A stretch of DNA of 64,000 nucleotides from Siderastrea radians. Taxonomy: Eukaryota; Cnidaria; Anthozoa; Scleractinia; Rhizangiidae. Under the pieces are notes generated by a model. The model searched no databases. It had not been told where the DNA came from and worked only from the letters and a program-made list of their open reading frames with translations. The DNA lies in contig OZ024890.1 of the NCBI GenBank assembly GCA_964017195.1, positions 48,385,093 to 48,449,092 on the forward strand, in the 5' to 3' direction. Position numbers and translations under genes: made by a program. Of the stretch, positions 2,367-52,816 are shown piece by piece (position 1 is the first letter of the stretch; the number at the start of each line of letters is the position of its first letter).

Positions 2367-3505
2367 TAGGCTATGCAAAATTGACATTTTCCTAAAATAG
2401 ACATATCTGCTGAGGGACAAGTGGGTCACGTTAAATCAGCTTTTAACACTTAACAAATACATGAAACCTGCCAAAAGGTAAAATAAACGCTAACAAAGTA
2501 CACGGTTATCGTTTGAATCATTTCACTGCCGCAGATCTGGAACATAAACGTTTTGCAGCTATTGATGTCGTTCCTACCCCACCCCTCCCCCGACAGATTT
2601 CAGGTGAGTCAGTGGTGTATTATTTAATAATTACAACACAAAGTCATTTCAAACTAGTCGAACGGTTTCATTTGACTTGTCGGTGTTGTTTTCAATCCTT
2701 TAGAATCTAAAATAACGTTATAGGCCATAAAAACAGACTGAAATGAGAGAATTGAAGTCGACAGGTTGCGTTACTGTGCGTGACACAGAGAAGCGACTTT
2801 CGTACATGGATAACTTCTCGACGGCAAATTTACTATTTTACATGGAGAAAATGGCAACCAAATAAGTTCAGGTATTCCACAAGGAACACGAATTTGCTAT
2901 ACCAGCCTACACTTTCTACGTGATCACTCAAAGACACTTCAAACATACTGCATGAAATATGTTGGGACGGACGTACGGGCATGAATGACGTCATGACCCA
3001 AAAGTTAAGTCACATGGTTTTTTTTTTCACATGGTTTGAGTCACATGGTTTCTATAACTATTAAGAGCTCCGCTCTCGCGGGACCTTGGACCTTGTTTTT
3101 TTTTGTTTTGTTTTTTTGTTTAGAAAGTTGTAAATATAAAGCTGGGGGAAATTGTACGAAAGTACGAATGGTCTATAACGAAGGGTCTTTATTAATGAAG
3201 ATTGAGGCCTCCATTGAACTGAAAGCAGAAAGGCGCGCTAGTTGAATAGAATGGGAAATAGCAATAGTCATTTTTTTTTCAGCTTACAGATGTAATGTTA
3301 ATTGTCGAGTTGTGTTAGCAGTCTCATTTTGGCGGCGAAAATGAAGTGAGCGCTAGAAAACGTACTATACAATTCTTATATCAGAGACTGTTAATCCTGC
3401 TGTAAATGGAGCAAGAATATAGAGCAGCAAGTAGAGAAACAGAACCTAATTTAAGAAAATTGCGCGTCTAACGCGGTGTTGAGTAAATCATAAAGGCAAA
3501 GTTCT
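2367..3505. other. Noncoding stretch, nothing recognised
   Basis: Contains T-rich tracts near 3017-3030 and 3094-3120 and short open frames without recognisable content. No RNA gene or repeat family was identified. Confidence 0.5.
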
Positions 3506-26975: not shown

Positions 26976-27214
26976 AACCACTTTACGGTGGCCAATCTAC
27001 CTTATCAACTCAGTTGATAAATCCAAAGTTTTGTATTTCACTTCCCCACCGACGCAGCACCACAGTTCCTTTAAATACCACCCCCCTCGTTAGCTATACA
27101 CTGTCTATGCAATGATAAATAAAACGAAAACCAGCATTTTTTCATTGAAATTACAGACAAAATAGTCGCAGTTTGTTGTGAGTGAAGATTATTAAATGAT
27201 CAGCTTGCAATGGA

Positions 27215-31673: not shown

Positions 31674-34123
31674 AGCGTAGGTCTGATTGAGTGGATAGAT
31701 CACTCTCGCTTCTACACTGTTTCGCATTTGTGAAATCTCGTGTTAGTTTTTCGATGCTTTTCTAGCATAAAAGAGTATTTCCTTAAAATTATTGTTATGC
31801 TCGAAACTGTGAGCGTGAGTTCTATAGCTGTCGCGGAAAAGAAAGAGATGAGTCCTCCATATCTCTTGAAGTTGACAAAACTGTTTTCACAATATCACCG
31901 GATAGAAGATGATTAACACCGGCTTATTTGGCACGAGAGATGAACAAGTACATGTTGATAATATCTCAAACATAAAACAATAAACAACTACTAGGCGAGG
32001 TTTTTTTTGCGCATAAACACGTTAGTTTGCCAAAATATAAAAGGAAAAGCCTGATGTAATTATAATAATTAGAGCCTTCAAAGTTAGTTGCTTTTCTTTT
32101 CATCACATGTGCTTAGCATTAGTTTCGACATTTGTTTATGCTGGAAACCAATGAATTGAAAGTTTTATTGAGTACTTAATCGTGCTAAATAGCACTTGCT
32201 TACCTACAAGCAATGCGTTACATCATGTGCGTTTCTGATCATATTGTTTAAGCTAATGTTATCTTTGGGCGCACACTCAAATGGCACTTCAGATCGCCGC
32301 TAAAATCTACTCCAAATTTGTGAGATTTTACTCTATTGCAATGACATTTTGAAAAATATAACAAAAAAGTTTATCTTAAATATGATGAAAGTAATTGATT
32401 TTCACAGCTTCTGTTTCAAAATCATCCAAAACAAATCAACAAAGTTTTGAGAAGTTGAAAAATTGTTACTTGTTTGATTTTCAATCATTCGACATAGAAC
32501 TAACCGACTACCTTGAGTGCTAAGATTTGAAGTCTCCGATCGCTTCGGCTTCTACCCAAACATCAGCCTCCAAACTAGCGTGTACTGGATCAGTATAAGA
32601 AACACATTTATGGGGCAGTTGAGACAGACAGACGAGTAGAACATTTATTATGGCACAGTTAAGAAATGGGTCGTTTGGTCGGTATTAGCGGAGCCTGTGG
32701 GCAAAGCCCGCCAGCGGAGCTCCATTGATAAGCAAATTTGGTATCCTATCGATCCGAGAAATTTTGGTTGTGACGTAATAGTCACGTGACCGTCCGTCCG
32801 TACTTACGTCCGTCGGCACAGACTCTGCGGAAGGGGAGAGGAGTCCCAAGACAACCCGACGGGGGAGTAGGGAATGCCATCTTTTCTTGGCGGGAAATCG
32901 CGCGGTGATTTTGGGCAACCGGCTTTTTTTTCTTGGCGGGAAATCGCATGACCATCGTCGCTTTTGAAAAAGAGGTTTCTTTAAAGGCTTAAGCTTCTTT
33001 AGCAAAACGATTGTACGAGAGTACTCAGTGAAGTTTTATACTCGACAAAAAAACATGTAATATCTATAAATGGACAGAAAAAGTTCAAAAGAATACTGGT
33101 AGAAGGCGAAAAGTTCAAGTTACAAAAGCTGCCTTCGAAGGACTTCTTTGCTTTGTTTTCTTCACGGCGGAGAGCTTGCCCTGTTTGAAACATAACCGAG
33201 TAAATGAAGTTTTTAAAAGGGCTAAGGTACATGATTTTGATTATTACGGTAAAAAAAATTACGTTTTGAAATGGGAATTTAATCTACGTCATTAGAAATG
33301 TGTCATTTACTTTTGGCTTTCTAAAAGCGCTCACATTTCAAACAACGTGCAGCCGCAAAACTTATGCTATAGAGGGATAAGCATGTTTCAGGGTGTTTGT
33401 TTGTTTTCAATCTCGATGGTCTCAAGTTAGAGAACGAAATATAAGGGTTACTTATAAGTAACTATAAGCGAAGCAGTTTTGAGTTTGAAGCTATTTTATC
33501 CGGTAATTAAAGAGTGCCCCTCAAAGCGCTCGAATTTTTTTCTAGGCTGCTATAAAAGCCTACGCGACATTTCTTTGATAAGTTTATTACAAGTGCTTCG
33601 AAGCTCCCCAGATCCTTTCTTTCGGATAATCCCAGTAAAATGCCAGTGTAATGCCAGTATAAATTTTTGACCACAATAATAGTGGCAGTTCATGTCATTT
33701 GTTAACATCCGAACGCGATGAAGATAACCCATTTAAATTTTGTTGTTGTAAATGTCTAAATGAGCGCCGTTTCAAGTTCATTCAAGCGAACAGACAATAA
33801 TCCAAGGAGATTTAACAAGCCTTGACAGTTAGTGACAGGATATGAAAACATTGCAAACACCAAGGAAGACGGCTCGTGAGTAAAATATGTGTTCAGTTTG
33901 ATGCCCGAAAAAAAAAATAATCAAGCTGTGCTCAGCCTCTAAAATGACCTTTCGAGCTTGGTTTTACAGAACTGGGGGCCGTTTCTCGAAACTCCCGATA
34001 ACTTTCCGGGCCCGAAAACTATTTTAGGTGTGCAATATGCTCCGATAGCTATACAATTTTTATTGATTTTGAAAGCTAAATTTTAATCTTTATAATTTCG
34101 TGAAGCACATTGCTACGGTGGCC

Positions 34124-34395
34124 CATGAGTGCACTCCGAATTCCAAATGACACTCCAAATTTCTAAACACACTCCCAATTCTTAAACCTCACTCCCAATT
34201 CTAAAACTTCACTCCCAATTCAAAAAGCTCACTCCCAATTCCAAAAACTCATTTCGAATTCAAAAACTTCACTCCGAATTCTGAAAACTCACTCCCAATT
34301 CTAAAACTTCACTCCGAATTCTGAAAACTCACTCCCAATTCTAAATCTCACTCCCAATTCTAAAACTTTACTCCAAATTTTATAATCTTACCTTC
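34124..34395 (+). repeat. Left subterminal minisatellite of the transposon
   Basis: About a dozen ~20-bp units alternating CACTCCCAATTCTAAAACTT and CACTCCGAATTCTGAAAACT, with a spacing of 18-21 bp. Reverse complement of the right array. Confidence 0.9.
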
Positions 34396-34555
34396 CGAAT
34401 AATTCACCTCGCCCCAAACATTTTCATTCCGTTCAACTAAATAATCTCGCTCGAAAACACTTGCAGTTAAAGTCGCAAGGGACTGGATTGAGCTTTCCCG
34501 AAATGCATCATGGGTACAGTTGAGTCCTCCCGCCATCTTGTTCGGACGAAGCAAC

Positions 34556-35336
34556 ATGTTTTGTTCAAGCTGTGGAGTAAATGCGAAGATAATGGCAGGT
34601 TTTGCTCCAAGTGTGGGCAAAACATCGTCACAAATTTTGGCAAAGGTATGTAGGTCTTATTTTTCAGTACTTTTGTATCCACCATTGATCAGATCATCGA
34701 GAAAATTGAGTTTCAGTCCGACATCAGCTATTGAGTTTTGGCGGGCTTTTTGCTGTAGTTTAAGCGGCTTCAAAATTCTACCTTAATTTGCCCAAGCTGT
34801 AGACGTTGATGTAAACTTGACTTAGCTTTATTTTACTTTTATTTGTTTTCAACGATCAACAGCACAGCAGTATGTGAGGCCACAACACAGCTTTCTTAAC
34901 ATTAACCCTGGTCCCTCTACATCAACAGCCCCAGGTGAGGGACCGATCGTTTATTACATCGCAGAGGGGGGCGGTGTTGTTATAGTGGGGGGGGGGGGCA
35001 CAAATTTAAAAATCCTGCGTAGGTGGCGGGTACATATAGAACAAGGCTTAATCAAACAAAGGAATCTGTTGTTATTAACTTATTCACATTAGTGGCAGGG
35101 TATTCTGCAGTTAAGGGCAAGAAAAACATTCCAGCACATGACCATGATTACATGTAGTTTCTATTCTATAACAAGAATAAAGCGTGTTAAGTACATTACC
35201 CTTGCCTGGTTAGCAGCCACATACAAATGCTTCTAGTAAAAACAATAGACAGAATATTATAATTAGTTTTGTATTTTTTCCCACACAGCGGCACACTTCA
35301 GTCCCAACCAATCTGGTCCTTGTACAAGTACACAAG
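34556..35336 (+). pseudogene. Zinc-ribbon 5' exons of the HECT-like transposon gene
   Basis: Exon 1 (ATG 34556 to donor GTATGT at 34646) encodes FCSSCG and, one frame over, RFCSKCGQNI: a CxxCG..CxxCG zinc ribbon split by an apparent 1-bp loss. Candidate exon 2 (34863-34934) lies between CAACAG and GTGAGG and encodes FLNINPGPSTSTAPG. Candidate exon 3 (35289-35336) lies between CACACAG and GTACAT. A further small exon may end at the GTGAGT near 35561. These feed into the exon that begins at 36015. Splice sites are inferred from consensus only. Confidence 0.5.
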
Positions 35337-36014
35337 GTACATTATTATGGGTTAACGTGTTTCCATAATATATCCACACACCGCGCTCACCCCCACACCC
35401 TCTTTCCGTAGAGTTTCACTCTTAGACCTCCCTTGGTAAAAAAGTGTTTTTACAGTCATGCACAAGATCAACCCCACTTCATAATTCTCGATATGCAATC
35501 CTGTACCTTTTTTTTCATTTTAAAACACATGGGGTCCTTCAAGAAGAGCAACTGAGACGGTGAGTGTTTCTATGAAATGTATAGCATTCTTCTGTCATTT
35601 CAACATGACAACAAAAAGCTGTGTTTGTAAATTGACTTTGTTTATTTGCCCAAAAAAGGTTAGAAATCACACCATCACTCCATATCATGTATAAATAAGC
35701 CAAAACATGCAGTGTTTAATGTTTTGAGCATAGGAGTGATGTGATTTTGCAAATGCCAAAAATGGCGATTAATTTTTTTTGTTTCATCTTTGCATTGACA
35801 CAACAGAGCAATACAGACTTGTGTTTCAAACTTTATTCTTGCAATTATCTGCACAAAAACGGAAAAAATTGTTTCCAAGGTGTGGGGTGTGGATAAAGAT
35901 CTGCTTCACAGACCACTAGACATAGTGTAATACTCAAACCAAGTATTTATCACCTTGGATTACTGAACCATACATTTTTATCGGTTGAAAGAATCTTCAA
36001 AAACTTTTTTTCAG

Positions 36015-36520
36015 GGGAAAGAATGGAAAGCCATGGTGTCCAAAAAACAAATTGACAAGGAAATGGAAGTCCAAGTTATGATAGGCATGATGTACTTTTG
36101 TGAAAAGGGGATGCGCCTTAAACCAAAAAGAGGGAAGCGTATTGCTTTGTCAGTGTCAAATAAAGCACCCTACAATGTCATCCTGGAGAAGGCAGTGGAC
36201 AAGTTCAAGGCTTACTACAGTGATATTTTTGACACCAGTGAAGACTATGTGTTACTTCTAGAAAATGGGGAGGAGGCCCAGTTGATCCCGGGGTCATGCC
36301 CCAAAGAGTTGTTTTCATTGAAGCAGTATAAAGAGGACCTGGGAAAGGATTATGCCAAGATTGTCCTTTATTTGTGTCGTATGAATGACTTCATAATTAA
36401 CACAGACGATGATGAAGAAGATGAAAAGGAAGAACAAGATCTTTTTCATGAAAGCTCAACAGCCAAAAAGAGAAAAACAGAACCAACTGTGGCATTTGAA
36501 GAGGTATCACTACATATGAA
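36015..36520 (+). pseudogene. Ubiquitin-like N-terminal region of HECT-like gene
   Basis: After a TTTTTTTCAG acceptor, an open frame encodes a ~110-residue alpha/beta region: VQVMIGMMYF, MRLKPKRGKRIALSVSNKAP, VLEKAVDKFKAYYSD (approximate), YVLLLENGEEAQLIPGS and YKEDLGKDYAKIVLYLCR, then a very acidic tail (NTDDDEEDEKEEQDLFHES). Strand-helix order and placement ahead of a HECT-like domain match the N-terminal ubiquitin-like region of the G2E3-like proteins that are abundant in fish and cnidarian genomes. The frame shifts near 36520. Function unknown; a role in recruiting ubiquitin machinery is speculation. Confidence 0.65.
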
Positions 36521-37817
36521 TCAGATGAAGCCATGGCTATGGAATTTCAAAAGAAGTTTGATGAGGAAAGTGATGAAGATCTTACCGTTCCCACATTTGA
36601 TTCTCACAGTCTACAGAAAACCACCATAGCCCATGAGGATAGTGCAAGTGTAGTGCGTGCAATGCAAAAGAACGTCAAGCAAGATCATGACTTTTACATC
36701 GTTACTCGACGAGGAGCACCACTTCCAAGAGTAATTTCCCTTCGGCAACGCCAAAGCAACTAAAGTCCAGAAAATGTCCTAAGAATACAATATTGTGGGG
36801 AAAACGGTATTGATACAGGGGCATTGCCCCAAGAATTTTTCTCAAGTGTTGTTTTGGACATTGGAAATCAATGTTCCCTGATGGAGCACCCGTTAACTCC
36901 ATCTGCAATGTTCAAGATAAAAGCTTTAAAACATGTGGCGAAATTGTTGCAGCTTCATTAGCACAGGGTGGTCCTTCTCCGTCGTTTTTAGCTGAGCCTG
37001 TGTATGAATTGATGCTAACGCTTGAAGTCAAGCTTGACCAACTTGATGCTGAAACACATTTCACTCCTAAGGACAAGGAACTCTTTGGACAAATAAGAAA
37101 CTGTGATTCATTTGATGATAGCTTAAGCAACTTAATTTTAGACCATGGATACACTGGCCCATTAGACAAGAACCATCAAGATGACATTATTGGAACCATT
37201 CAAGTGAGCATTATGAACAAGCGCTTACTTTACTTGAGAGAATTCTGTGAGGGTCTCAAACTGTTTCATGTTTATGCACTTGTTAAAGATTATGCTGCCC
37301 TCTGCAAAGACCTGTTTGTGCCAAATACAAGTGGTTCTGTGGATTCAGATATGTCTTTTCACTGGTTTCACCATATTATTCAGCAGAAGGAACATCAAGA
37401 CGGAAGCTGGAGGAGGAAGTCATGGACAATTTTCAAGATTTCTTATCAACTGTGGAAGATAAGAACATCACGGGCTACACAGAAGCAGTGGCTTGGAAGG
37501 AGAAGAATGACATTACAGATGAAAATGGCGTTCTGGAAGCTGAAAAGTGTCAGGCTGTGGACGTGAGTCCAGCCGGAGTACTTGGTTGGTTAACAGGCCA
37601 GCAACATCGCCCTGTAAATGGAGAACAACTGACCATAAGGGCACATTTCGACCACGATTGCGTGGAGAGAAATCCCAAGCACACCATCTGCTTTCCTCAA
37701 GTTGGAGCGTGTAGTAGGGAAATTACATTCCCTGTGGCACACATGACTGACACGAAAGAGTTTGAACACATTTTCCTTCTGGCTCTTTGCAAAGGTGGTG
37801 CATTTTCAAAGGCATGA
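36521..37817 (+). pseudogene. HECT-like (G2E3-type) ubiquitin ligase domain, frameshifted
   Basis: Blocks in order: a UIM-like acidic helix (DEAMAMEFQKKFDEESDED), FYIVTRRGAPLPRV, a TAA stop at 36760-36762, then VLRIQYCGENGIDTGALPQE with FF, a shift near 36860 into MFPDGAPVN, KTCGEIVAASLAQGGPSPSF and LAEPVYELM, a shift near 37390, then GVLGWLTGQQHRPV, KHTICFPQVGACSREITFPV and FLLALCKGGAFSKA before TGA 37815-37817. The G-x-D-x-G-x-x-x-E-F and GEI-A-SL-QGGP motifs mark the HECT N-lobe, and PxxxxCFPxxxAC the C-terminal lobe in this family, although the usual HECT Thr-Cys-x-x-x-L context is atypical. At least three frameshifts and one stop show decay in this copy. Confidence 0.7.
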
Positions 37818-38589
37818 GGCTACCAGGAAATTGCACAATTGATTACAAAGGATTGTGAACTTTCAGGCTAAAGTTTCATCAGGGAGGTGGGATGGTTTTA
37901 TCCAACTAGGTATCATTACTTTGTATTTGTGCTGTTCATTCCAATTTCGACTTTGTCTTCTCAAACACCAGAGCGGCTAAGGAAGCATTGAAACAGTTTC
38001 ATGTTGCAATTCAGTAACGAGGTTTTGTATAGTTATAGTTAGGTTACAGAGTTTTTGTAATAGCAAGTAATGGTTGCCATTATGCAAAACGAGAGAGAGA
38101 GAGAGGGAATGTTGAAGCAGAAAAGGTCAGTGTTTGTACTAAGTTTATACGGCAATCTTTGTGGTGTATTAGTATGGAAAAAAATTTCCTTATTTTTGAT
38201 TTTCCAAAAAAAAAAAAGAACAGCTGGTCATATTTGCTAATGAAATTTTAATTCATCTTAAGCTTGCTTTTTTTCTCTTGGGGAGAAAAAAGAGAGGTTG
38301 CATAATGTAAAAAAAGACAAGTATGTTCTGTTACGCAAATGAATCGTTAGTTTGTAGCTATTCCGTTAGTATGATATAGTATTATTGGCCCATTTTTGTG
38401 AACCAGATTCTGTATCTAAAACTGCATTTGATGTTAAAAGTTGGCCCGCAAGAATAAAACTATTTTACCTATAAGATGAAATTAACGTAACAGACTGATT
38501 GCTCTGTTTAATATTATCACCAGGAAATGGCCCATGACGGTAACAATTCAATGTGGGAATGATTTCTAGTTTTAATGATGACATACCAC

Positions 38590-38885
38590 ATGAATATCTG
38601 GTTGCACCCCCCTTGACCCCAAGACACTTAACACAAGTTTGGTTGGTTGGCAGTGTTCCCTTCTTGAGCTGTGAGTTTTTCTATTTTTGATGACGCCATC
38701 GCTGATTTCATAACATGTTGCTATGCGGCTGCAGCCCATCCCCCCCCCAAAGACACCTTTACTTGATTGTCTAGCAGGGTTCTCTTCTAACTTTTGATGA
38801 TGTCATGCATGTGGTTGCACCCCCCCCCCTTGCCTCCTTTAAAACATTACCTAAGTTTGGTTGTCTGACAGTGTAGGAAAACCAT
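38590..38885. repeat. Imperfect ~115-bp tandem repeats with C tracts
   Basis: Three diverged copies of a motif with GGTTGCACCCCCC, CCTTTA..A, AAGTTTGGTTG, CTGACAGTGT and TTTTGATGAYGYCAT. They lie between the 3' ends of the two convergent genes inside the transposon. Confidence 0.65.
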
Positions 38886-39033
38886 TCAAGTATCCTAGTT
38901 TCCAACTGGCCAATCAGACACGTTTGCCCCACATACACTAGGAGTGTATCATCTGAAAACAAACTTGGTCTCTGATCTTCAATACAATTCAAATTAATCT
39001 GAGTTAGGGCAGGTGGGTCTGACACTGAAAAAG

Positions 39034-40260
39034 TCAACAAGATGCATAGGAATAAAGATTATGGTACAAATCCGAGGCTTCTCGCCAGTTTTGGGGGTTT
39101 GAAAGTCCTGCAGCTTGAAAGGCATGCTGAAAATACTCCTGGTATTCATTGGTGTTCTCTGCAAGGGCAAGGTAATTCTCTGTGATATAGTCACACTGCT
39201 GTGCACTGACAGGAGCACGAAAATCTTCAGTATTGTGCAGTTCAGGTAAGTAAAACAACTCATTGGGTCTTCCTTTTACCGTGTCATAGCGCGACCCTCT
39301 GATGTAGTGGCTGTTCCAGTGTTCTTTTACCCTGTCCAAATCTTGCTGAATCAGTCCGGAAAAACAGAACCACAAGCACTCCATCTTCAGTTCATTACCA
39401 GAAGTAAAGACTTGTTGTTCCATTAAGTCCTTGAAAAAGTTGATCCACCAAGTAGTTCTGTGTTGTCTTAGGTACGACCACCACCCTTCTATTCGTTGGT
39501 TATGAGGTGAGGTTTCATAAATATGTGCCAGATCGTTGCCAATGAAATAGCATTGTGCTGCTGCTACGAGGCTGTTCTCAGTGCCACAGTCAGTTCTAAC
39601 CTTCAGGGGGCATCCTCCGTATTCCTTCACAGCATCCATATAATATCTCCCGATCACTAAGGGGTTATTGTTTGTTGTATCCAATCTTAACCATATTACC
39701 TTGCGGCTGTAACCGTCAATACAGCCATGGATCGCGAAACCGTCAGGTTTAATTTTTTCATACCCATCAATATGCCAACAGTAGTTCGGCCCTGGATTAG
39801 TGTAAACTCTTCTCTTAAGCTTCCGCCTTCGTCTTCTTTCGCACCCCTCAGGATCCATTTCTTGTAAGCATGTCGCCACTGCTTGCCTCGACACCTGATA
39901 ACCCTCACGGCGTAAACTATGCCACATGCTCCTGTAGCCCGATAAACAGCCAGGCCCATCTAACTCTTCCTGTATTCTAGCTCTGACATCCTGGTTATAT
40001 GAATCCAACAGGTTTCGTCGTCGAAGGCCAAGTCACTTGAATCTCTCCTTGAGCGTTCGCAGGCTCATTCCTATTCCGTGGTATTTCAGCAAAAAGCACA
40101 GAATAACGTCATACTCGTATCCTTCGTTGAAATAATGTTTTAATGCTAGCGTTTCTTCATCAAGTTCAGCACCACAGGTGGCACAAAATTTGTTGTAAAG
40201 CGACAATGTTGCTGTGCAAACTTCACATTTCAGTGATGTTGTCGAGTTTGCCACCGCCAT
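39034..40260 (-). pseudogene. IS3EU-like DDE transposase, one in-frame stop
   Basis: Reading starts at ATG 40260 (MAVANSTTS) and ends at 39034; about 409 codons with a single TGA at 40033-40035. Domains, numbered from 40260: zinc ribbon CEVC..FCATCG ~11-34; helix-turn-helix ~45-85 (GMSLRTLKERFK, stop, LGLRRRN); a second helical region ~90-135 (GYRSMWHSLRREGYQVSRQA); integrase core ~145-330 with catalytic D165 (CWHIDGYEK), D224 (VRTDCGTEN) and E258 (HNQRIEGWW); then WNSHYIRGSR and a C-terminal tail. The three acidic residues are intact. The stop sits between HTH and core; everything else is open, so decay is slight. The enzyme would cut and join the ends of this element. Recognised as integrase-core (rve) of the IS3EU type; confidence in rve is high, in superfamily moderate. 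Confidence 0.8.
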
Positions 40261-40384
40261 CTTGAAAATGTAGCTAATATCCCGTGATACATTTCGACAA
40301 AACTTGGCCCAGTCTCTGGCGACTCTAGCTCAAGATATCCAGCGGTCTATGCTAGCGTATTGTGAGGATTTGAAAATTTCGGGG

Positions 40385-40670
40385 TAAAGTTTTAGAATTC
40401 CGAGTGAATTTTTAGAATTAAGAGTGAGTTTTAGAATTGGGAGTGATTTTTCAGAATTCGGAGTGATTTTTCAGAATTCGGAGTGATTTTTCAGAATTCG
40501 GAGTGAGTTTTCAGAATTCGGAGTGAAGTTTTTGAATTCGGAGTGAGTTTTTGGAATTGGGAGTGAAGTTTTAGAATTGGGAGTGACGTTTTAGAATTGG
40601 GAGTGAGGTTTAAGAATTGAGAGTATGTTTAGAAATTTGGAGTGTCATTGGAACTCGGAGTGCACTTGTG
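40385..40670 (-). repeat. Right subterminal minisatellite of the transposon
   Basis: About thirteen ~20-bp units such as AGAATTCGGAGTGATTTTTC and AGAATTGGGAGTGAAGTTTT, the inverted counterpart of 34124-34395. Adjacent units at 40450-40510 are almost identical, suggesting recent local expansion. Confidence 0.9.
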
Positions 40671-40970
40671 GGCCACCGTGCATTGCTAAGTTTGCGCCTA
40701 TAATTACCATTTGGCGATAAATAAATGAGTTCGAAAAATTACTTACCGTGCCCGGAAAGTTATCGGGAGTTTCGAGAAACGGGCCCCTCAGATCCCCAAA
40801 ATACTGGAGGACAATTTGAAGCAGTTTCGGGCTTTTTGAGAAACACTTTTCGAAAGCGAACGAGCCAAAAAAAGCCCCGAAATATATTTCAGACCGAAAA
40901 GTTTCAGGACTATTTTTGAGAAACGAACACCAGTTTATTCCTTGGCGGCTCCGCTTTTAGGCTTGGATAA

Positions 40971-51193: not shown

Positions 51194-52816
51194 TATAGAT
51201 TTAGCCAAGCCTAAAATCGGAGCCGCCAAGGAATAAACTGGTTGTCATTTCTCAAAAATAGTCCTGAAACTTTTTGGTCTGAAATATATTTCGGGGTTTT
51301 CTTTGGCTTGTTTGCTTTCGAAAAGTGTTTCTCAAAAAGCCCGAAAGTGTTCCGAATTGTCCTCCAATATTTTGATGATCTGTTCTGTAAAACCAAGCTC
51401 GAAAGGTCATTCTAGAGGCTCTCAGCACAGCTTGATTACATATTTTTTTCGGGCATCATACTAAACACGTATTTTACCCACGAGCCGTCTTCCTTGGTTT
51501 TTGCAATGTTTCCATGTCCTGTCATTAACTGTCAAGGCTTGTCAAATCTCCTTGAATTATTGGCTGTTCACTTGAATGAACTTGAAACGGCGCTCATTTA
51601 CAACAACAAAATAAAACTTATTTTGAAGTAAATGGGTTATCTTCATCGCGTTCGGATGTTCAGCTAACAAATAACATGGACTGCTACTATTAGTCTGGTA
51701 AAAAATTTATACCATCAAGATTGAAAACAAACAAACGCCAAACATGCTTTAAATTATGGCATAAGTTTTGCGGATGCGAAGTAAGCCTATATAAAGTTAG
51801 GCGCTTTGAGGAACGCAGAAACTTTTTTCGGAAGCTTTTCTGATAAAATAGCTTTAAACCGACAACTGCTTCGCTTAAAAGATTATTACTATTGAAAACT
51901 TCTAGGACAAAAAAATCGACAATCAAAATTGAATTAAGCAATTATTTGCCGTAATCTCATTGAAGTGATGCTTGTGCAGTTGCATTGCGACTGTACTTTG
52001 ACCTACTGTTATGATTAAACAAACACAAAATAATAAACAGGGAAATCAATTTTGAAAAAGTTTTTTCGAAAACGCGTAAGTTTATACTTAAATGCAATTC
52101 GCGTTACACTTCCAGCATCGTGGGTCCGTCCACGCGAGTAAAATCGGCTGTGCATGGCAAAATATTCAAGACTACATCTGTCACAAATCTGAGCGCGTTT
52201 TCTTATAATTTTTTAAAGTCAAAAGTAAATGACACACTTCTAATGACATAAATTAAATTTCAATTTCAAAATGTAATTTCTTTGACCGTAATACTCAAAA
52301 TCATGCACCTTAAACCCTTTAAAAACTTCACTTACTCGGTTGTGTTTCAGAACAGGGCAAGCTCTCCGCCGTGAAGAAAACGAAGCAATGAAGTCCTTTA
52401 AAGGCAGCTTTCGTAACTTGAACTTTTCGCCTTCTACCAGTATTCTTTTGAACTTTTTCTTTCCATTTAAAGCTTTTAGATGTTTTTTTTCCTCAAGTTT
52501 AAAACTACAGCACTGTAGAACAATCGTTTTGCTAAATAAACTTAAGCTTTTAAGGAAACCTCTTTTTTAAAAGCGACGATGGTCATGCGATTTCCCGCCA
52601 AGAAAAACGCCGGTTGCCCAAAAGCACCGCGCGATTTCCTGCCAAGAAAAGATGGCAGTAGCCATCCCCCCTCGGGTTGTCTTGGGACTCCCCTCCCCCT
52701 CCCCCAGAGTCTGTTCGGGCGGGCCGCGTACGCTGACTTCACAACCAAAATTTCTCGGATCGACAGGTTACCAAAGTTGCTTAGGAATGGAGCTCCGCTG
52801 GCTCCGCTGGCTCCGC
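51194..52816 (-). mobile_element. TATTA-flanked repeat family, copy 3, uninterrupted
   Basis: 1623 bp, inverted relative to copy 2. It aligns with 32688-33973 and 40788-40967 with no gap where the 6.8-kb and 0.7-kb insertions sit in copy 2, so it is the empty-site reference. Flanks read TAATA (51189-51193) and TATTA (52817-52821). No recognised protein. Confidence 0.8.

What the first reader, a model, noticed from the sequence alone, without database searches (positions are those of the whole stretch)
34114..40680. IS3EU-like transposon carrying an intron-containing HECT-like ubiquitin ligase gene
Direct: precise 6-bp duplication CATTGC, inverted termini, and two convergent genes inside, a DDE integrase-core transposase and a multi-exon gene with zinc ribbon, ubiquitin-like region and G2E3-type HECT-like domain. 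Known: integrase-core (rve) transposases of the IS3EU group exist in fish and cnidarians, and G2E3-like HECT proteins are strangely abundant in the same genomes. Inference: the abundance of G2E3-like genes may come from their being standard cargo of this transposon, which would make a ubiquitin ligase an accessory transposition or anti-silencing factor.
Basis: partly seen in the sequence, partly recalled or inferred. Interest (0 to 1): 0.9.

Follow-up and report, generated by a model that had tools for sequence, protein, structure and literature searches.

The report
Transposon carrying its own ubiquitin ligase
A "jumping gene" in a coral-like genome carries, besides its cutting-and-pasting enzyme, a gene for a protein-tagging enzyme (a ubiquitin ligase), and most of the related jumping genes that we opened in the same genome carry one too, so the ligase looks like standard equipment rather than an accident.

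Summary
The element is real: 34114-40680 (6,567 bp), exact 6-bp duplication CATTGC, TACGGTGGCC-type ends, ~20-bp subterminal arrays, two convergent genes: a DDE (rva_4) transposase, and a zinc ribbon / ubiquitin-like / HECT ligase gene. This copy is dead: one stop in the transposase; frame breaks and a stop in the ligase. The test ran in the window's own 805-Mb genome. Of the 20 best-scoring other HECT loci, 19 have a convergent IS3EU-type transposase in the same 10 kb; the exception is an element with perfect ends that lacks it. From the other side, of 7 transposase loci chosen because no HECT was listed nearby, 6 have a diverged convergent HECT gene and one keeps only its first exon. All 47 pairs found by coordinates are convergent. 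In two families a zinc-ribbon exon lies inside both terminal repeats, so both enzymes begin nearly alike. Discordant trees suggest that HECT modules were exchanged between transposase lineages. Against: 20 heavily decayed transposases have no listed HECT; 99 of 146 HECT loci are unpaired in a capped list. No held paper names IS3EU and HECT together; Repbase was not available. Most likely an E3 ligase targeted to the element and acting on host control; that role is inferred.

The parts
34108..34113 (.). target-site duplication CATTGC, left copy
   Evidence: sequence
34114..34146 (+). left terminal inverted repeat (TACGGTGGCCC...)
   Evidence: 32-bp arms 91% complementary
34132..34379 (+). left subterminal array, ~20-bp units (20-bp row starts at 34151, 60-bp row at 34132)
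34460..34514 (+). block before the ligase start that is homologous to the right end (score 38; largest of 500 shuffles 29)
34556..34645 (+). ligase gene exon 1, zinc ribbon, with one frameshift in this copy
   Evidence: read by eye; intact counterpart in P0144 and in L005
34863..34934 (+). ligase gene exon 2 (predicted)
   Evidence: splice signals and phase, read by eye; not checked with RNA
35289..35336 (+). ligase gene exon 3 (predicted)
   Evidence: splice signals and phase, read by eye
35544..35559 (+). ligase gene exon 4 (predicted, least certain)
   Evidence: splice signals, read by eye
36015..37817 (+). ligase gene last exon: ubiquitin-like domain then HECT; frame changes and an in-frame TAA in this copy
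   Evidence: five pieces match the A1 profile, E 4e-79 to 5e-13
39034..40260 (-). IS3EU-type transposase: zinc ribbon, HTH, DDE core; one in-frame TGA at 40033-40035
40281..40334 (-). block before the transposase start, homologous to 34460-34514
40378..40644 (-). right subterminal array, ~20-bp units
40648..40680 (-). right terminal inverted repeat
40681..40686 (.). target-site duplication CATTGC, right copy
   Evidence: sequence

Best explanation
The locus is a decayed copy of a two-gene IS3EU-type DNA transposon. In this genome the second gene, convergent with the transposase, is normally a HECT ubiquitin ligase with a ubiquitin-like domain and, in several families, an N-terminal zinc ribbon. 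SHOWN: the pairing at the loci examined, its fixed orientation, the conserved catalytic cysteine, terminal repeats that in two families contain the start codon and zinc-ribbon exon of both genes, and discordant gene trees. INFERRED: HECT modules have been exchanged between transposase lineages; the shared ribbon gives ligase and transposase one address (the element's ends or arrays, or each other); and the ligase ubiquitinates a host protein there, most likely one that silences the element or blocks the transposition complex. A host target fits module exchange better than a transposase-specific partner would. Confidence below is for the architecture and standard-cargo claim in this genome; for the host-directed role I would say about 0.4.
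For: 19 of 20 fetched HECT loci carry a convergent transposase. Two further loci picked from diverged HECT hits, L031 and L032, both have a convergent multi-exon transposase. 6 of 7 transposase loci picked because no HECT was listed nearby have a diverged HECT gene, and the seventh (L026) keeps its zinc-ribbon exon. 47 of 101 merged transposase loci pair by coordinates with 146 merged HECT loci within 8 kb, all convergent. By transposase state: no stops 41 of 59 paired, one or two stops 6 of 22, three or more 0 of 20 (6 of 22 by subtraction). Catalytic Cys in 16 of 16 aligned HECT rows and in the L033 exon; DDE in 29 of 29 transposase rows. L012: 451-bp inverted end repeat at 93% holding ATG, zinc-ribbon exon and splice donor on both sides; L016 likewise. 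In the window the end homology reaches past the arrays to a block shortly before both start codons.
Against: 0 of 20 transposase loci with three or more stops have a listed HECT; these may be a transposase-only lineage or decay, and none was fetched. 99 of 146 HECT loci were not paired by coordinates, where only 102 of 985 transposase candidates had been scored; of the 99 only those fetched were checked. 18 of 59 stop-free transposases had no listed HECT; I opened three of these 18 (L025, L026, L033). The 20 HECT loci fetched were the best-scoring ones and include nine copies of one family. HECT and transposase identities do not correlate across the six families (r=-0.35). One genome only. No activity, expression or splicing data. 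Within-family dN/dS of HECT is mostly 0.4-0.9, weak evidence of selection on recent copies.
Confidence: 0.88

Rival explanations
1. The ligase acts on the element's own transposase or transposition complex: it limits transposase level or clears the complex from the ends after strand transfer.
For: A shared zinc ribbon and homologous end sequences put both proteins under one control and perhaps at one site.
Against: A transposase-specific partner should co-diverge with it; D-family HECT stays 43-53% identical to the A, B, C and window families while its transposase is only 29-32% identical to them, and L025 shows the reverse.
Confidence: 0.3
2. The HECT gene is a passenger with no role for the element, such as a host gene that spreads by being inside it.
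For: A transposase-less HECT element (L024) and a HECT-deleted element (L026) both exist; within-family dN/dS is only mildly below 1.
Against: Presence in very diverged families, conserved Cys, fixed orientation, and other HECTs where the usual one is absent.
Confidence: 0.15
3. The HECT fold is kept for binding (ubiquitin or DNA) and is not a working ligase.
For: Single sequences of the window's group match Pfam HECT weakly: 3 of 27 relatives at E<=0.1, best 2.6e-4.
Against: Cys in the catalytic place in 16 of 16 rows; Pfam HECT E=6e-8 in L028 and 3e-6 in L029, both above Pfam's cut-off (L027, 9e-4, is below it).
Confidence: 0.1
4. Chance capture or nesting at this one locus.
For: Nested insertions do occur here: the element itself sits in a MITE-like repeat.
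Against: The same convergent pair recurs at 19 of 20 fetched HECT loci and in diverged families.
Confidence: 0.01

Closest known systems
[quoted passage not shown] part 1 of 5 of the text and passages seen)
   Same: 6-bp TSD, TA..TA ends, IS3/IS481-like DDE transposase without an HHCC domain
   Different: That paper's main text has no HECT or ubiquitin; here a HECT ligase is the regular second gene
Fungal TET+ IS3EU elements (PMC12730594; passages seen)
   Same: IS3EU with TAYGG..CCRTA ends; an alpha-kinase gene in the opposite orientation to the transposase; TET/JBP cargo passed between transposon lineages
   Different: Cargo is a TET/JBP dioxygenase and an alpha-kinase; no HECT or ubiquitin in the main text
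Deubiquitinase (VTD, OTU) domains in Helitrons (PMC9741609; abstract and passages seen)
   Same: A transposon carrying a ubiquitin-pathway enzyme, with one enzyme class replaced by another of like activity in related elements, and a suggested role against control of transposition
   Different: They remove ubiquitin, within rolling-circle elements; here a ligase that would attach it, in an IS3EU element; HECT is not mentioned in that paper
Unclassified repeats with G2E3 similarity in Cottus fish (PMC5638112; one passage seen)
   Same: Repetitive elements with a blastx match to G2E3 among them
   Different: No transposon was assigned; a link to IS3EU is my inference
HECT E3 ligases (HUWE1, Smurf, Rsp5, UBR5; solved structures)
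   Same: Both lobes and the place of the catalytic Cys
   Different: 11-18% identity in the 50 structure rows listed; inside a transposon; preceded by a zinc ribbon and a ubiquitin-like domain
Ulp1-type SUMO proteases in MULE transposons (recalled, no call)
   Same: A transposon carrying a gene of a ubiquitin-like system
   Different: A protease, not a ligase

Membership tests
IS3EU superfamily | 6-bp target-site duplication | tested here: met
   Both ends were found by script in 4 of 22 stretches searched: exact 6 bp in the window, L018 and L024, one mismatch in L004, the duplicate of the window's locus. In the other 18 the script found no such pair; at least some left ends lie outside the fetched 10 kb
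IS3EU superfamily | TAYGG..CCRTA termini | tested here: met
   TACGG/CCATA in L018, TACGG/CCGTA in L024, CCGTA at the right end of L005; the window is TACGG/CCGTG, one base off
IS3EU superfamily | IS3/IS481-related integrase-core DDE transposase | tested here: met
   rva_4 E=4.8e-37; HTH_21 E=1.2e-5, below Pfam's cut-off; DDE in 29 of 29 rows
IS3EU superfamily | Placement among Repbase IS3EU/GingerRoot transposases in a tree | not tested
   Repbase sequences not at hand; GingerRoot paper not held
HECT E3 ligase | HECT fold with N- and C-lobe | tested here: met
HECT E3 ligase | Catalytic cysteine | tested here: met
   16 of 16 aligned rows plus the L033 exon
HECT E3 ligase | Ubiquitin transfer activity | not testable with these tools
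   needs a biochemical assay
G2E3 orthologue | PHD-type zinc fingers before HECT (recalled) | tested here: not met
   No PHD family at E<=0.1 in any of 27 relatives
Ubiquitin-like domain | beta-grasp fold | tested here: met
TET+ / alpha-kinase IS3EU | TET/JBP or alpha-kinase cargo | not tested
   No dedicated search; Pfam scans of seven window ORFs and ten ORFs of other loci listed neither at the thresholds used

The most novel reading that the evidence does not exclude
Animal IS3EU elements are a two-enzyme class of transposon, transposase plus HECT ligase, in which a zinc-ribbon exon carried in both terminal repeats is spliced onto either enzyme so that the ligase shares the transposase's address; HECT modules are traded between lineages in an arms race with host silencing; and the large G2E3-like families of corals and fish are mostly genes of these transposons.
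Probability: 0.5. Interest if true: 0.88.

Novelty: new variant of a known kind. Interest (0 to 1): 0.78.

Why it matters
It would explain why G2E3-like HECT genes are numerous in some animal genomes (they would be transposon genes, often annotated as host genes). It would add a ubiquitin ligase to the transposon accessory enzymes already in print, such as the fungal TET/JBP dioxygenases and the Helitron deubiquitinases. And it gives a natural system for asking which host protein an animal transposon must remove or modify in order to move.

Tried and rejected
Chance capture or nesting was rejected. Simple co-divergence of the two genes between families was tested and not found. The 98% copy L004 was first taken for a possible independent insertion; identical flanks show a duplication. 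A second TACGGTGGCC at 26984 is not a further copy by eye: no array follows it, and the profiles find no transposase or HECT there. Viral contigs gave no relatives for either protein; genome contigs, searched with the transposase alone, gave one contig from a sponge-symbiont bin, L001, with a fragmented transposase. Single-sequence Pfam did not find HECT in the window's gene. dN/dS within families is weak, and between families dS is saturated or nearly so. A search with the 783-residue HECT of L031 found 14 relatives and added little. Literature: 10 searches used, two of them too broad to be useful; no held paper has both IS3EU and HECT.

Full report
OBSERVATION. The element runs from 34114 to 40680 (6,567 bp) between two copies of CATTGC. 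Its ends are inverted repeats: TACGGTGGCCC, then about 250 bp of ~20-bp tandem units on each side. The last base at the right is G, not the expected A; an independent copy, L005 (94% identical from element position 442 on, other flanks, left end missing), ends CCGTA. The element lies in a palindromic repeat of about 240 bp, itself inside another repeat whose second copy at 51201-51712 lacks the palindrome. A 98% copy 0.79 Mb away has the same flanks and the same pattern of ligase frame pieces, so it is a duplicated locus.

THE TEST IN THE WINDOW'S OWN GENOME. A search with relative P0122 gave 82 matches (70 of 225 candidates scored), which merge to 44 loci including the window and its duplicate. 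In 19 of the 20, a transposase lies convergent to the HECT gene in the same 10 kb. The exception, L024, has perfect 20-bp ends, an exact TCAATG duplication and a HECT gene with 10 non-synonymous differences in 606 codons from that of L011, but no transposase: a derivative that lost it. The sample favours well-preserved copies, and nine of the 20 belong to one family.

FROM THE OTHER SIDE. A search with transposase relative P0002 gave 110 matches (102 of 985 candidates scored), 101 merged loci. A search with a diverged HECT (L029) gave 106 matches (106 of 170 scored). Joining coordinates: 47 of 101 transposase loci have a listed HECT within 8 kb, all convergent, and no HECT locus has a transposase only in another orientation. 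By state of the transposase: no stops 41 of 59, one or two stops 6 of 22, three or more 0 of 20. By my own arithmetic fewer than one pair would be expected by chance. I fetched seven transposase loci with no HECT in the lists at the time: L025-L030 (none in the P0122 list) and L033 (none in either list). L025, L027, L028, L029, L030 and L033 have a convergent HECT gene: Pfam HECT E=6e-8 in L028 and 3e-6 in L029, 9e-4 (below the cut-off) in L027; L030 is of L029's family (97%); L025 and L033 show HECT exons by profile. L026 keeps an open transposase frame and only the first exon of the second gene. L031 and L032, picked as diverged HECT hits, both have a convergent transposase that matches in ten and nine separate pieces.

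SHARED FIRST EXON. In L012 the inverted end repeat is 451 bp at 93% and contains, on both sides, the start codon, a zinc-ribbon exon and its splice donor: MFCANCGAAVPLNANFCVQCG on the HECT side and MFCANCGAGVPLNANFCVQCG on the transposase side. L016, of another family, has the same arrangement. L005 and L026 have a ribbon at the start of both genes, but diverged ones, and so does L025 (for the ligase; the transposase ribbon read by eye). In the window the two ends are still alike beyond the arrays, over 55 bp some 20-40 bp before the start codons (score 38; largest of 500 shuffles 29). That the exon is spliced to both coding regions is inferred from sequence. The motif scan found no ribbon in L007, L011, L018-L020, L024 and L027-L032, and at only one of the two genes in the rest; a ribbon outside the fetched stretch, broken, or of another form is not excluded.

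HISTORY. Identities for 22 loci (the duplicate included) fall into six families by HECT. Between families the two genes' identities do not correlate (r=-0.35; 17,852 of 20,000 permutations as high). D (L018-L020) has a transposase 29-32% identical to all others, but a HECT 43-53% identical to those of families A, B, C and the window; L025 has a transposase 46-55% identical to the A, B, C and window families but a HECT of 22-26%. Trees agree: D is outside in the transposase tree, on a very long branch, and inside the A-B-C-window group in the HECT tree, with weak support for its exact place there; one constrained alternative for each tree is rejected, at p=0.023 and 0.021, with groups that I named after seeing the identities. 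The reading is that HECT modules have been exchanged between transposase lineages. The split of L027-L029, L031 and L032 from the rest appears in both trees. Catalytic Cys is present in 16 of 16 aligned HECT rows and the L033 exon, DDE in 29 of 29 transposase rows (rows include near-copies). Within families dN/dS of HECT is mostly 0.4-0.9 with few changes, with two outliers above 1 based on none or one synonymous change; between families dN is 0.43-0.59 and dS saturated or above 3.

MECHANISM. Shown: architecture, recurrence at the loci examined, orientation, conserved catalytic residues, end repeats with a shared ribbon exon in two families, discordant gene trees. Inferred: the ribbon brings the ligase to the element's ends, its arrays, or the transposase, and it ubiquitinates a protein there. 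I favour a host silencing or repair protein (about 0.4) over the transposase itself (about 0.3), because a transposase-specific partner should co-diverge. The ligase can probably act in trans, since a HECT-only and a HECT-deleted element both exist.

KNOWN AND NEW. Termini, TSD and transposase fit IS3EU as described in PMC10045372 (part 1 of 5 and passages seen) and PMC12730594 (passages). The latter reports fungal IS3EU elements with TET/JBP and alpha-kinase genes, the TET/JBP gene passed between lineages, so cargo on IS3EU is known. Helitrons carry deubiquitinases of two classes, apparently interchangeable (PMC9741609, abstract and passages), so ubiquitin enzymes in transposons are known too. 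I found no held paper with IS3EU and HECT together. The listings of the other searches on HECT with transposons showed me no report of a HECT gene in a transposon; two leads from them, PMC9741609 and a fish study with an unclassified repeat matching G2E3 (PMC5638112, one passage), were opened. Repbase and the GingerRoot paper could not be read, so a second ORF may be on record there. I file it as a new variant of a known kind.

LIMITS. One genome, unnamed (cnidarian by its protein relatives, an inference). 99 of 146 HECT loci remain unpaired by coordinates; those fetched among them did have transposases except L024. 15 of the 18 stop-free transposases without a listed HECT were not opened. Decayed transposases without HECT may be a separate transposase-only lineage. 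Genome searches after did not complete.

Noticed in passing
window 33973-34113 plus 40687-40788: The element interrupts a palindromic MITE-like repeat that is itself inserted in another repeat; the second copy of the outer repeat at 51201-51712 lacks the palindrome.
   Followed up: partly
G000:C4:47629810 (L004) and the window: A segment holding this element occurs twice, 0.79 Mb apart on one contig, ~98% identical, with the same insertion site and ligase frame pieces.
   Followed up: partly
L027:1363-2643, L028:6777-8039, L029:6792-8240, L030:1315-2682: Transposases of these diverged families begin with a hydrophobic, signal-peptide-like stretch (by eye) where others have a zinc ribbon; odd for a nuclear enzyme. 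Unexplained.
   Followed up: no
L031, L032, L001: Some IS3EU-type transposases here, and one on a contig binned with a sponge symbiont, match in many short separate pieces, as if split by introns; L001 has TACGGTGGCC at 268 and a tandem array at 3314-3430.
   Followed up: partly
G000, 20 loci such as C11:23033031 and C14:9340116: A set of heavily decayed transposases (three or more stops), 47-76% identical to P0002, has no listed HECT neighbour.
   Followed up: no
window 40254-40264 and 34530-34540: CCGCCATCTTG lies at the transposase start and shortly before the ligase start; its reverse complement resembles a YY1 site (motif recalled, read by eye).
   Followed up: no
window 26984: An isolated TACGGTGGCC inside other sequence; by eye no array follows it.
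   Followed up: partly
L025:7145-7684: The second gene of this family has a C..C-H..C zinc-finger motif before HECT, like fish relatives P0172 and P0173 (by eye).
   Followed up: no
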